Source: Asticcacaulis sp.
Lineage (GTDB): Bacteria > Pseudomonadota > Alphaproteobacteria > Caulobacterales > Caulobacteraceae
Assembly: GCF_020217185.1 (NCBI RefSeq)
Contig: NZ_JAIWNX010000251.1
Location: 1 to 10,000 of the forward strand
DNA length: 10,000 nt
Direction: 5' to 3'
Shown here: piece after piece, positions 1,187 to 8,844 of the stretch
Numbering within the stretch: the stretch's first letter is position 1
How the letters are laid out: every line of letters starts with the position of its first letter
Program-made: the position numbers and the translations under genes
The notes under the pieces: model-generated
What the model saw: the letters and a program-made list of their open reading frames with translations, nothing else
Databases searched by the model: none
Told to the model about the DNA's origin: nothing

Positions 1187-1197
1187 GATTAGATGCG

Positions 1198-1219
1198 CCT
1201 CCCCTGATTTCAGGGGCGG
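1198..1219. repeat. Dispersed palindrome, D family, copy 1
   Basis: A 22-base near-palindrome with arms CCTCCCCTGA and TCAGGGGCGG around TT; the core CCCCTGA/TCAGGGG is perfect. Two close relatives occur at 4431-4452 and 4527-4548. All three are intergenic, which suggests a dispersed short palindrome family and not three independent operators. Confidence 0.6.
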
Positions 1220-1225
1220 CGGTTT

Positions 1226-4420: not shown

Positions 4421-4430
4421 TCGTCCCGCC

Positions 4431-4452
4431 TCCCCCCTGATATCAGGGGGGA
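4431..4452. repeat. Dispersed palindrome, D family, copy 2
   Basis: A perfect 22-bp palindrome starting 10 bases after the ileS stop. Each arm is an extended form of CCCCTGA/TCAGGGG with six C/G, around a TGATATCA centre. A second hairpin, CCGGCT/AGCCGG (4455-4468), follows at once, and a third, GGGGTTA/TAACCCC (4472-4496), comes next. Together they make the ileS-lspA gap highly structured. No U-run follows, so they could stabilise the ileS 3' end or attenuate lspA without being classical terminators. Confidence 0.65.
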
Positions 4453-4526: not shown

Positions 4527-4548
4527 CCTCCCCTGACATCAGGGGAGG
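4527..4548. repeat. Dispersed palindrome, D family, copy 3
   Basis: Arms CCTCCCCTGA and TCAGGGGAGG are perfect 10-bp complements around a 2-base centre. The right arm contains a Shine-Dalgarno-like GGGGAGG, but it ends 28 bases before the lspA ATG, too far to serve it. It is the same family as 1198-1219 and 4431-4452. The rest of the ileS-lspA gap shows no gene. Confidence 0.65.
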
Positions 4549-4576
4549 TGCTTATCTTCTGCATCGACGGCCAATC

Positions 4577-5832: not shown

Positions 5833-5926
5833 AACCACAGATTTCACAGATTTCACAGATTATCCGTGCCCGTGTCACTCACCCGGCGCGCAGCGCCCAT
5901 CTGTGAAATCTGTGAAATCTGTGGTT
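5833..5926. repeat. Palindromic element family A, copy 1
   Basis: A 94-base element with perfect 28-base complementary arms (5833-5860 and 5899-5926). Each arm is three 9-base units of the CACAGATTT type. The middle has a CCGTG-rich spacer and a small hairpin, GGCGC and GCGCC around GCA (5885-5897). A single strand could fold into a nearly complete long hairpin. No protein is encoded: open frames here only translate the 9-base period into repeated tripeptides. Confidence 0.8.
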
Positions 5927-5965
5927 CACACCTCTTACTGACATCGCGAGCGAGACTCTTTTGAA

Positions 5966-6042
5966 CCAAGGATAGATACGGATGACGAAGGGCGTTCGTC
6001 TGGCACAGATATCCGTGTCGGCGGCGAAGCCGCCATCCGCGG
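5966..6042. repeat. Palindromic element family B, copy 1, degenerate
   Basis: Matches the B element at 6223-6309 through the left arm, the GACGAA/TTCGTC hairpin, the AGATATCC centre and the GGCGGC-GAA-GCCGCC hairpin. It has point changes in the left arm (CCAAGG for CCACGG, TACGG for CACGG), and the right arm is cut to about one unit. It is 39 bases after A copy 1. The 55 bases at 6043-6097 that follow show no feature. Confidence 0.7.
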
Positions 6043-6097
6043 TGCAAGACATTCCTTAAAAGCCCACGGGCGTCACGACTCATGCAGAAACAGGAGA

Positions 6098-6182
6098 AAC
6101 CACAGATTTCACAGATTTCACAGATTATCCGTGCCCGTGTCACTCACCCGGCGCGCAGCGCCCATCTGTGAAATCTGTGGTT
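6098..6182. repeat. Palindromic element family A, copy 2
   Basis: Identical to A copy 1 except for a precise 9-base deletion of one repeat unit from the right arm, so the arms carry three and two units. The flanking 40 bases also match those after copy 1, which shows that an A+B module was duplicated in tandem 265 bases apart. Confidence 0.8.
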
Positions 6183-6222
6183 CACACCTCTTGCTGACAT
6201 CAGGCGCGGGACTCTTTTTGAA

Positions 6223-6309
6223 CCACGGATAGACACGGATGACGAAGGGCGTTCGTCTGGCACGGATATCCGTGTCGGCGGCGAAGCCGCCATCCGTGTG
6301 CATCCGTGG
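6223..6309. repeat. Palindromic element family B, copy 2
   Basis: An 87-base element: left arm CCACGGATAGACACGGATG; hairpin GACGAA/TTCGTC (6241-6257); perfect palindrome CACGGATATCCGTG (6261-6274); hairpin GGCGGC-GAA-GCCGCC (6277-6291); right arm of ATCCGTG units. It matches the B element beyond mutL at 81 of 87 positions in the same orientation. Confidence 0.8.
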
Positions 6310-6319
6310 CAAACCTTGC

Positions 6320-6426
6320 GGCGCGAAGCGCCCTCACCTGTCTTACCGCACAAACCGTAAGGGCCTTCGGGCGCGGGCGGCGTTACGGCTCAGCGTTCGT
6401 GATTTTGGTGTTTTTCGTGGCCAAAA
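6320..6426. repeat. Palindromic element family C, truncated copy 1
   Basis: Contains the inner hairpin GGCGC-GAA-GCGCC (6320-6332) and, about 75 bases on, a right arm of CACGAAAAA-type units in reverse (6395-6426). That arm differs from the complete C copy at one of 32 positions. The left arm is missing: B copy 2 ends 10 bases before the inner hairpin, so the two look fused. A CCGTAA/TTACGG pair lies inside. Confidence 0.7.
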
Positions 6427-6437
6427 CCTTCCCGACA

Positions 6438-6466
6438 TTGCCCCCGTCACCGGACTCACCTAAATT
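6438..6466 (+). promoter_or_regulatory. Candidate mutL promoter with a GANTC site
   Basis: TTGCCCC (6438-6444), 14 bases, then CCTAAATT (6459-6466) fits the Caulobacter housekeeping pattern TTGACGS, N10-14, GCTANAWC with good -10 agreement (5 of 7 defined positions). In E. coli terms it is TTGCCC, 17 bases, TAAATT. The predicted start is about 6473, the A of the mutL ATG, which would explain the lack of a Shine-Dalgarno. A GACTC (6453-6457) lies in the spacer and would be a CcrM methylation site in Caulobacterales. It is inferred from consensus. Confidence 0.5.
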
Positions 6467-6472
6467 GGGTCA

Positions 6473-8389
6473 ATGGCTCATATTTCCCGCCTGCCTCAGG
6501 ACACCATCAACCGCATCGCCGCCGGCGAGGTGGTCGAGCGTCCGGCTTCGGCCATCAAGGAGCTGGTCGAAAACGCCATCGACGCCGGCGCGACGCAGAT
6601 CGACATTTTCGCCGATATGGGCGGCCTGTCGCGCATCCTGATCGAGGATAATGGTCGCGGCATGGACGCCGACGACCTGCCGCTGGCGGTCGAACGCCAC
6701 GCCACTTCCAAGCTCAAACCGCAGGCCGACGGCACCTGGGATTTGCTGCATATCCAGACGCTCGGCTTTCGCGGTGAAGCCCTACCGTCCATGGGCTCGG
6801 TGGCGCGGCTGGACATCACCTCGCGTGCCAAGGGCATGGACGGGGCGATTGCCATTACGGTCGATGCCGGGGCGATGTCGCCGCTGCGCCCCGCCGCCTT
6901 TTCGCGCCCGCACGGCACGCGGGTCGAGCTGAAAGACCTGTTTTACGCCACCCCGGCGCGCCTGAAGTTTATGAAGACCGACCGCGCCGAGAACATGGCC
7001 ATCAGCGAAGAGGTCAAGCGGCAGGCCATGGCGCACGAGGATGTCGGCTTTTCGCTGACGCTGGACGGCAAGCGGTCCCTGCGCCTCTACCCCGAAGAGG
7101 CGGGGTTTGAGGGGCGGCTGAAGCGCCTCGCCGCGCTTTTGGGCGATGATTTCGGCCACAATGCCCTGCTGATTGATCAGCAGCGCGAAGGCGTCCGCCT
7201 GACCGGCTATGCGGGCCTGCCGACCTTTTCGCGCGGCAATGCCCAGCATCAGTACCTGTTCGTCAATGGCCGGCCGGTACGCGACAAGCTGCTGACCGGG
7301 GCGCTGCGCGGGGCCTATGCCGATTTTCTGGCCCGCGACCGCCACCCGATGGCGGTGCTCTATGTCGAGACCGACCCGCAGGATATCGACGTCAACGTCC
7401 ACCCGGCCAAGGCTGAGGTGCGCTTCCGCGACCCCAATCTGGTGCGCGGCCTGATCGTCGGCGCGCTGAAACATGCGCTGGCCTCGGCCGGGCACCGCGC
7501 CGCGACCACCGTTGCCGATCAGGCGCTCAGCGCCTTCAATCCGCTATCGTCGGGCTATCGCGCGCCGATGCAGCCGACCCTGTCCCTGAATGGAGGCTAT
7601 CAACCCCGCGCCTTCGCCACGCCGGAGCAGCCGCACCCCAACTATCAGCCGGCGTGGAATGCCGACCTGACCTTTGCCCCGTCGGCCAGAGTCGAAAGAG
7701 ACCTTGTTACCGCCGCACCCACGATGGAGAGGCCGGAGGACAGCGGCCTGGCCGAAGCGGGGGTTGATCTACGCACGCTCAGCCAGCCCCTGCCGCCCGA
7801 ATTTGAGTCCTATCCGCTGGGGGCTGCAAGGGCGCAGTTGCACGAGACCTACATTCTGGCGCAGACCAAAGACGGCCTGATCATCGTCGATCAGCACGCC
7901 GCCCACGAACGGCTGGTCTATGAGCGCATGAAGACCATGATGGCCGAAGGCAATGTGGCGCGTCAGACCCTGCTCATCCCGGAAATCGTCGATCTCGACC
8001 CCGCCGATGTCAGCCGCCTGATGGCGCGGCGCGACGATCTGGAAGGCTTTGGCCTGATGATCGAAAGTTTTGGCCCGGCGACGATTCTGGTGCGCGAAGT
8101 CCCGGCCCTGATCGGCGACGGTGACGTGGCCGGGCTGATCCGCGACCTGGCCGACGACATTGCCGAAAACGGTCAGGCCCTGATCCTGAAAGAGCGGATG
8201 GCCGAAATCTGCGGCAATATGGCCTGCCGTAACTCGGTGCGCGCCGGGCGGCGTCTGTCGGCCTCCGAAATGAACGCCCTGCTGCGGCAGATGGAGGCGA
8301 CGCCGCATTCGGGCCAGTGCAATCACGGCCGCCCGACCTATGTCGAGCTGAAGCTGAAAGATATCGAAAAGCTGTTCGGTCGAAGATAG
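6473..8389 (+). CDS. mutL: DNA mismatch repair protein MutL, endonuclease type
   Basis: A 638-residue mismatch-repair protein that couples MutS recognition to strand incision. The N-terminal GHKL ATPase (about 1-330) shows [10 protein letters not shown], the Mg-coordinating E33-N34, DNGRGM at 59-64, the ATSKL lid and GFRGEA at 98-103. A Pro/Ala-rich linker spans about 343-440. The C-terminal dimerisation/nuclease domain carries the metal motif [12 protein letters not shown] (473-484, matching DQHA-x2-E-x4-E), [10 protein letters not shown]616-N-H-G-R-P621 and the FGRR tail, all marks of latent endonuclease MutLs in bacteria without MutH. QTLLIP (498-503) matches the beta-clamp binding motif. 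No Shine-Dalgarno precedes the ATG; the N-terminus is normal for the family. The gene stands alone, hemmed in by palindromic repeats that begin 3 bases after its stop. Identity is certain. Confidence 0.98.
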
Positions 8390-8391
8390 GG

Positions 8392-8549
8392 TTTTGCCAC
8401 GAAAAACACGAAAAGCACGAACGGTGTCGGAGCGCTTTTTTGCGCGAAGCGCCTGAAAAACAGACGGATCGTGCGCTGTGCAACGGCTTTTGGGCAGAGC
8501 ATGTCCGCTATTTGAATGTTCGTGTTTTTGGTGTTTTTCGTGGCCAAAA
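8392..8549. repeat. Palindromic element family C, complete copy
   Basis: The left arm (8392-8422) has TTTTG-CCACG followed by CACGAAAAA-type 9-base units. The right arm (8518-8549) is its complement with three small differences. The inner hairpin GCGC-GAA-GCGC (8442-8452) has the same distance to the right arm as in the truncated copy. It starts 3 bases after the mutL stop, so mutL mRNA would end in this hairpin; it may act in 3' end formation, though no U-run follows. Confidence 0.75.
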
Positions 8550-8586
8550 CCATCAAAAAAGCGGCTCGTTAAACGGTATTATTTAG

Positions 8587-8673
8587 CCACGGATAGACAC
8601 GGGTGACGAACTGCGTTCGTCTGGCACGGATATCCGTGTCGGCGGCAAAGCCGCCATCCGTGTCTATCCGTGG
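8587..8673. repeat. Palindromic element family B, copy 3
   Basis: An 87-base B element with nearly perfect arms, CCACGGATAGACACGGGTG and the complement of CCACGGATAGACACGGATG, one mismatch apart. It has the GACGAA/TTCGTC hairpin, the CACGGATATCCGTG palindrome (8625-8638) and a GGCGGC-AAA-GCCGCC hairpin. It is a direct repeat of 6223-6309 across mutL. Confidence 0.8.
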
Positions 8674-8695
8674 TGAAAAAGAGCCCCGCCCGCGA

Positions 8696-8769
8696 AAGCA
8701 CAGAAGGGCGCTGCGCGCCGGTGCTGGTACCACAACGCGGTTAATCTGTGCAATCTGTGAAATCTGTGG
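8696..8769. repeat. Palindromic element family A, copy 3, degenerate
   Basis: The right arm (8743-8769) has three ATCTGTG-type units. The inner hairpin GGCGC-TGC-GCGCC (8707-8719) is the reverse complement of that in A copies 1 and 2, so this copy is inverted relative to them. The left arm is reduced to an AGCACAGAA remnant near 8697-8705. Confidence 0.6.
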
Positions 8770-8844
8770 CTTCTACTGCTTTAGGACACAGGTGCGGAAA
8801 GAGATTAACCACCTATATTCGCGGTGCCATTTCCAAGGGCGATC

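What the first reader, a model, noticed from the sequence alone, without database searches (positions are those of the whole stretch)
5833..8769. mutL flanked by three palindromic repeat families in mirror order
Elements of families A, B and C occur as A-B-A-B-C before mutL and C-B-A after it. A and C arms are built from 9-base units and B from a roughly 10-base unit, each with a GC-rich inner hairpin. Inner asymmetry shows B and C in direct orientation across mutL and A inverted, so the mirror order is not a simple inversion. Similar CACAGAT, CACGGAT and CACGAA repeats, from memory, occur in unrelated phyla and give spurious ORFs of repeated tripeptides; I know of no explained mechanism. A grouped, ordered set around one housekeeping gene suggests nested insertion into a permissive site, or a functional domain.
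Basis: partly seen in the sequence, partly recalled or inferred. Interest (0 to 1): 0.75.

Follow-up and report, generated by a model that had tools for sequence, protein, structure and literature searches.

The report
Palindromic mobile repeats paired with nuclease
The repeats around this DNA-repair gene look like gene-less members of a mobile-element type found in many bacterial phyla, whose full-length form carries a small nuclease gene between the same kind of palindromic arms; this gives a puzzling class of repeats a candidate enzyme.

Summary
In detail: A-B-A-B-C, mutL, C-B-A, with 9-base (A, C) and 10-base (B) iterated arms. It has no special meaning for mutL. Upstream A-B-A-B is a tandem duplication of one A-B unit (199 of 213 aligned bases identical). 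Related Asticcacaulis show stepwise gain and loss. Away from mutL, 27 of 30 hand-tallied loci of this genome hold one family only.

The main result lies outside the window. Such arms tightly flank genes of GxxExxY proteins (TIGR04256/PF13366, ~125 aa, PD-(D/E)XK fold): inverted arms scoring at least 15 at 110 of 142 gene loci (140 distinct), against 4 of 523 shifted windows. Copies sharing a gene but not flanks occur within one genome in two genera. Gene-less arm classes in Asticcacaulis track the resident gene's arm class (p 0.024, 0.003, 0.0003; 25 genomes, no phylogenetic correction). Orthologous C elements beside mutL changed their word in concert.

Best reading: MITE-like palindromes whose autonomous partner is a GxxExxY-nuclease element. 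That the nuclease is the mover is inferred, not shown; five element-rich genomes, the window's included, gave no PF13366 hit. Ten literature searches found no report of this link.

The parts
5833..5926 (+). A element 1 (arms 5833-5860 and 5899-5926, three 9-base CACAGATnn units; core with GGCGCGCAGCGCC hairpin)
5964..6043 (+). B element 1 (worn; right arm partly lost)
6098..6182 (+). A element 2, second half of the tandem A-B duplication; right arm one 9-base unit shorter
6221..6310 (+). B element 2; folds as a cloverleaf: outer stem plus three hairpins
6311..6422 (+). upstream C element, left arm lost (intact in orthologue G015); right arm 6396-6420
6473..8389 (+). mutL (bystander)
8396..8545 (+). 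downstream C element, both arms intact (three CACGAAnnn units each, the middle right one CACCAA)
8586..8674 (+). downstream B element, direct orientation relative to B1/B2
8694..8770 (-). downstream A element, inverted, one arm worn

Best explanation
A, B and C are non-autonomous, MITE-like copies of one broad type of mobile element. Its autonomous form is: palindromic arm made of iterated words (CACAGAT, CACGGAT, CACGAAA and the like) spaced 9-10 bases apart, then a ~125-aa GxxExxY gene, then the inverted arm. The GxxExxY protein, a small PD-(D/E)XK nuclease, most likely recognises its own class of arm, probably as the hairpin or cruciform that the arms can extrude. It would cut there and so start copying, moving or converting of both gene-bearing and gene-less copies in trans. 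The intergenic space on both sides of mutL has collected several such copies in this Asticcacaulis lineage. SHOWN: the association of arms and gene, matched arm classes, dispersed copies, stepwise gain and loss, concerted change of arm words at two elements. INFERRED: that the nuclease is the mover, and that structure rather than duplex is recognised.
Against: G000, G010, G011, G016 and G017 hold many arm matches and no PF13366 hit, including near-perfect arms in G011 and G017 (G016's count comes largely from one tandem array). Copies must then have outlived the gene, or something else moves them. Other mover enzymes were not searched for, beyond PF01797 in G000. No target-site duplication was recognised. 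32 of 142 gene loci scored under 15. Direct-orientation scores >=15 were 23 of 82, 6 of 30 and 3 of 28, and mismatched loci 74 of 406. Phylum-wide co-occurrence of triple arms and PF13366 (14 of 397 with both, p 2e-7) is carried by one family; within it p 0.051, outside it p 0.20. Resident/arm-class tests are not corrected for kinship, rest on hand-made labels, and for the A class are weak: p 0.45 at >=5 copies, 0.089 without G009.
Confidence: 0.6

Rival explanations
1. The arms and gene form one element type, but another enzyme moves it in trans; GxxExxY is an accessory nuclease, regulator or passenger.
For: Five element-rich genomes gave no PF13366 hit. PD-(D/E)XK proteins can act as accessory nucleases (general knowledge).
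Against: Of three widely spaced arm sets looked into, two were separate elements (L262, L267) and one an A element split by insertion-sequence-like genes (L263); this is a small sample. No Y1 transposase in G000. Arm class follows the GxxExxY clade.
Confidence: 0.25
2. The palindromes spread or persist by replication slippage and template switching, and GxxExxY is a homing-type selfish gene that uses them as landing sites.
For: Arms gain and lose exactly one 9-base unit. Compared with C112, the composite on C187 lacks an A right arm, as after a deletion between GGCGCGCAGCGCC repeats.
Against: Does not explain dispersal of whole elements to unrelated flanks with homology ending near the arms, nor gene-less counts tracking the resident class.
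Confidence: 0.12
3. A functional regulatory or structural domain of mutL (terminator, boundary).
For: Dense ordered cluster at one housekeeping gene.
Against: Among 19 relatives of the genus with 73-89% identical MutL, the arm scan found arm pairs near mutL in 5 and I saw 2 more by eye (part was cut). 27 of 30 loci away from mutL in this genome hold one family only.
Confidence: 0.03

Closest known systems
REPtrons and TIRtrons (REP/RAYT and TIRYT systems; PMC3733652, passages and section 16 read)
   Same: Short palindromic repeats dispersed in the genome, partner gene flanked by repeats of the same family, partner missing in some strains.
   Different: Partner there is a Y1 HUH tyrosine transposase; here a PD-(D/E)XK nuclease. 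Arms here are iterated 9-10-base words ending CCAC, not GTAG or CGTC hairpins, and the window's elements lack GGGGWSAS.
Prokaryotic MITEs, type II (review PMC10969869, passages read)
   Same: Short, terminal inverted repeats shared with an autonomous element, mostly intergenic.
   Different: Autonomous partner is not a known IS; no target-site duplication seen; arms are internally iterated and cores variable.
Caulobacter CIR elements (named in PMC10969869; primary paper recalled, not read)
   Same: Same family of bacteria; intergenic repeats.
   Different: Recalled defining feature, a CcrM site (GANTC) in the repeat, is absent from the window's elements.
GxxExxY protein family TIGR04256 / Pfam PDDEXK_3 PF13366
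   Same: The gene product inside the autonomous form.
   Different: No link of this family to repeats was found in the papers searched (one passage read).

Membership tests
MITE | terminal inverted repeats shared with an autonomous element | tested here: met
   A, B and C arms flank GxxExxY genes in other genomes of the genus; none in G000 itself. That the gene-bearing form is autonomous is inferred.
MITE | target-site duplication | tested here: inconclusive
   none recognised by eye at the sites compared; flanks often extend the palindrome
MITE | mobilised in trans by the partner enzyme | not testable with these tools
   needs an experiment
REP/RAYT | GTAG-tagged short hairpin | tested here: not met
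   elements end CCAC...GTGG with iterated arms
REP/RAYT | Y1 tyrosine transposase in the genome | tested here: not met
   0 hits to PF01797 in G000, 95.8% complete; other genomes of the genus not searched
TIRtron | Y1 transposase (TIRYT); some TIRs carry GGGGWSAS | tested here: not met
   no Y1 in G000; 5 motif matches in the window, none inside an element
CIR | CcrM GANTC site within the repeat (recalled) | tested here: not met
   18 GANTC sites in the window, none inside an element
GxxExxY / PDDEXK_3 protein (partner gene) | profile match and GxxExxY, D, ExK residues | tested here: met
   TIGR04256 E 3e-42 and PF13366 E 1.4e-39 for L102; E30, Y33, D70, E80, K82 invariant in 21 sequences, G27 in at least 90%
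Holliday junction resolvase Hjc | same fold | tested here: inconclusive

The most novel reading that the evidence does not exclude
GxxExxY proteins are the movers of a bacterial mobile-element class in which a stand-alone PD-(D/E)XK nuclease recognises extruded hairpins or cruciforms (B folds as a four-way cloverleaf) made of iterated words. The nuclease and the word co-evolve, so that copies in a genome switch word together. This would explain the CACAGAT / CACGGAT / CACGAA repeats scattered across bacterial phyla.
Probability: 0.35. Interest if true: 0.93.

Novelty: new variant of a known kind. Interest (0 to 1): 0.82.

Why it matters
Tying them to one small, conserved nuclease family turns them into a testable system. 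It also gives TIGR04256 a likely role and suggests a route of mobility unlike DDE, HUH or recombinase chemistry.

Tried and rejected
Rfam: 0 families in the window at gathering scores. Y1 transposase (PF01797): none in G000. GANTC and GGGGWSAS: not inside the elements. Neighbour orientation of 25 G000 elements by a longest-ORF rule: 10 tandem, 8 convergent, 5 divergent, 2 undecided; too rough to build on. PDB by sequence: one weak match, E 0.058, not used. Plasmids: GxxExxY relatives on 8 of 72,556 records; viral contigs: 2 loci; so neither looks like the usual vehicle. Wide-spaced A arms in G022 proved to be an A element split by insertion-sequence-like genes, judged from their translations only. 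L265 and L266 showed no arms with a strict pattern but clear ones by alignment, scores 43.5 and 37.5. Compensatory pair counting (count of structure pairs) was not run: 9-base indels among six sequences make the columns unsafe; unit tallies were read by eye. No primary paper on CIR elements was looked up.

Full report
1. What is in the window. The repeats are real and as described. A (5833-5926, 6098-6182, 8694-8770) has arms of up to three 9-base CACAGATnn units. B (5964-6043, 6221-6310, 8586-8674) has CACGGAT words 10 bases apart. C (6311-6422 without its left arm, 8396-8545) has three CACGAAnnn units per arm. Folded as single strands they beat all 200 shuffles: z -10.8 (A), -6.9 and -9.3 (two B), -6.4 (C). 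B folds as a cloverleaf: an outer stem of the arms and three hairpins, that is, a four-way junction. A-B-A-B is one A-B unit duplicated in tandem, 199 of 213 aligned bases identical.

2. Genome-wide. A word pairs without mismatch: 22 hits; B word pairs (up to 2 mismatches): 16; C triples (up to 3 mismatches): 17. Reversed-pattern controls gave 0, 0 and 1. By hand I tallied 30 loci away from mutL. This is a lower bound: one search lists only 13 of 36 A hits. A match on C152 was left out, as a near-identical one recurs in relatives and looks coding. Of the 30, 27 hold one family (11 A, 6 B, 10 C) and three hold two: C112 and C187 (A inside C) and C251 (B then A) (sum). In this tally no A-B-C order exists outside mutL.

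3. Relatives at mutL. The genus is Asticcacaulis: named record L125 shares 55 of 56 sampled 60-mers with L097 (G023), and L148 (Asticcacaulis sp. AC460) 55 of 56 with L118 (G007). In mutL orientation: G000 and G019 A-B-A-B-C / C-B-A; G005 A-B-C / C-B-A; G023 A-B-C / C-B; G010 A-B-C / C; G015 one C-like element on each side. Among the 19 more distant genus members (73-89% identical MutL) the arm scan found arm pairs near mutL in 5 (L062, L075, L077, L078, L080) and I saw two more by eye (L063, L076) (one search was cut in the middle). Arms differ by exactly one 9-base unit between close species. So the mirror order grew by steps.

4. The partner gene. From memory, GxxExxY proteins are often annotated with N-terminal peptides that would be read from such repeats; this was a lead. 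PF13366 was found in 13 of 25 genomes of the genus, not in G000. Flanks read at 28 gene loci show A arms (L102, L122), B arms with side hairpins at the same places as in the window's B (L095), C arms (L097, L099), and further classes (CACGAACnn, CACGGAAAA, AAGCCAGAT, 10-base CACAGATGGC). The gene is packed between the arms: for example, with the start codon that I chose, ATG directly follows the last left-arm word in L100 and L123.

5. Measured association. Best inverted alignment between 200 bases on either side of the gene, score >=15: 60 of 82 loci from named genomes and viral contigs, 25 of 30 from a phylum sample, 23 of 28 in the genus, plus 2 of 2 fetched later: 110 of 142 loci, 140 distinct since L125=L097 and L148=L118. 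The same score in windows shifted by 700 or 1000 bases: 2 of 293, 0 of 118, 2 of 112. Other controls: upstream of one locus against downstream of another 74 of 406 (arms share consensus); direct orientation 23 of 82, 6 of 30, 3 of 28 (tandem arms and neighbouring palindromes). One search kept the best 80 of 581 confirmed loci, so it leans towards relatives of L095; one search gave loci for 30 of 42 positive genomes, best scores first. Record titles of loci that reach 15 include Verrucomicrobia, Planctomycetota, Lentisphaerae, Deltaproteobacteria such as Desulfobacula, Nitrospira, Bacteroidia, Anaerolineales, KSB1, Riflebacteria, Sumerlaeota, Clostridiales and Calditrichia.

6. Arms and protein belong together. 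On a tree of 107 proteins, 81 with a clear arm class (26 dropped), the class needs 14 changes against 28.9 for shuffles, 0 of 200 as low; many forks are open and near-copies help. Within the genus, gene-less arm counts track the class of the resident gene: AGA p 0.024, GAA p 0.003, GGA p 0.0003 (Mann-Whitney, 25 genomes; counts; they include the few arms of gene-bearing copies). As presence/absence: 7 of 15 against 0 of 10, 6 of 11 against 0 of 14, 4 of 6 against 1 of 19. Residents were labelled by hand; the AGA set goes by protein clade and includes G009, whose arms read AAGCCAGAT; the GGA set leaves out the B-arm gene of G019 and the broken genes of G014, G018 and G022. With those four put in, GGA gives p 0.004; without G009, AGA gives p 0.089 by counts and 0.028 by presence; with the close group G000/G005/G010/G019/G023 cut to G005, p 0.012, 0.0006 and 0.001. 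At >=5 copies the A class is not significant (p 0.45). Cross-class tests were weaker but not all flat (GAA residents: AGA counts p 0.028, GGA counts p 0.041). Kinship is otherwise not corrected.

7. Mobility. G007 carries L108 and L118, 97% identical over 471 bases, with unrelated flanks and shared ends GTGGAATT...AATTCCAC; a Sunxiuqinia genome carries L156 and L158, 87% over 605 bases, with homology ending near the arms. A response-regulator gene was found in all 25 genomes of the genus; by eye 16 of 25 have the same neighbour downstream of it. At that junction G005 and G023 carry a C-arm element with gene, G015 a different gene with CACGAAC arms, G020 a gene-less CACGGA palindrome, and G000, G010 and G019 no CAC-word element. 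No target duplication was recognised.

8. Concerted change. Both C elements flanking mutL have A at the fifth place of the word in the G000 group (26 of 26 downstream units in five genomes, read by eye) and G in G015 (5 of 6), though the cores are homologous (downstream 66 identical of 107 columns, upstream 58 of 79; 0 of 500 shuffles score as high). G015 also holds a GxxExxY element with CACGGAAAA arms (L111), G005 and G023 ones with CACGAAAAA arms; G000, G010 and G019 gave no C-arm gene. This is what a trans-acting, word-specific factor with a homogenising process would do; independent replacement is less likely given the cores, but not excluded.

10. Against. G000, G010, G011, G016 and G017 are element-rich without a PF13366 hit. 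Across 397 genomes of the phylum, triple CACGRA arms and PF13366 co-occur in 14 (31 and 42 in all; p 2e-7), but one family carries this (within it p 0.051, outside it p 0.20), and the pattern also hits what look like tandem coding repeats. Whether the nuclease moves the elements, only cuts them, or rides on them is untested.

11. Literature. Ten searches of the held library (one search failed on a sign) listed no paper that by title, abstract start or the passages I read links GxxExxY or PF13366 to these repeats; most subscription papers are not held. The nearest systems are REPtrons and TIRtrons (PMC3733652, passages and section 16 read), which use a Y1 transposase.

Noticed in passing
L210, L218, L223, L076: Another intergenic palindrome family in the genus, around GCTCACGTACTyAAGTACGCT, unrelated to the CAC-word arms.
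   Followed up: no
L028, L048, L210, L229: A further family around GCGGAAAAnTGTGAGCGGTTTTCCGC followed by a TGTTTTGTCGCGA-like stretch, in more than one species of the genus.
   Followed up: no
window 1196-1220, 4428-4450, 4527-4551: Short palindromes of the type CCTCCCCTGATnTCAGGGGAGG between genes.
   Followed up: no
L263 396-4894: In G022 an A element is split by about 4.4 kb holding insertion-sequence-like genes.
   Followed up: partly
L264 2200-2944: In G020 three CACGGA elements stand in a tandem array on a 250-kb contig.
   Followed up: no
G000:C187 and C112 (L009, L004): Two copies of a C-with-nested-A composite; one lacks an A right arm, as after a deletion between 13-base GGCGCGCAGCGCC repeats.
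   Followed up: partly
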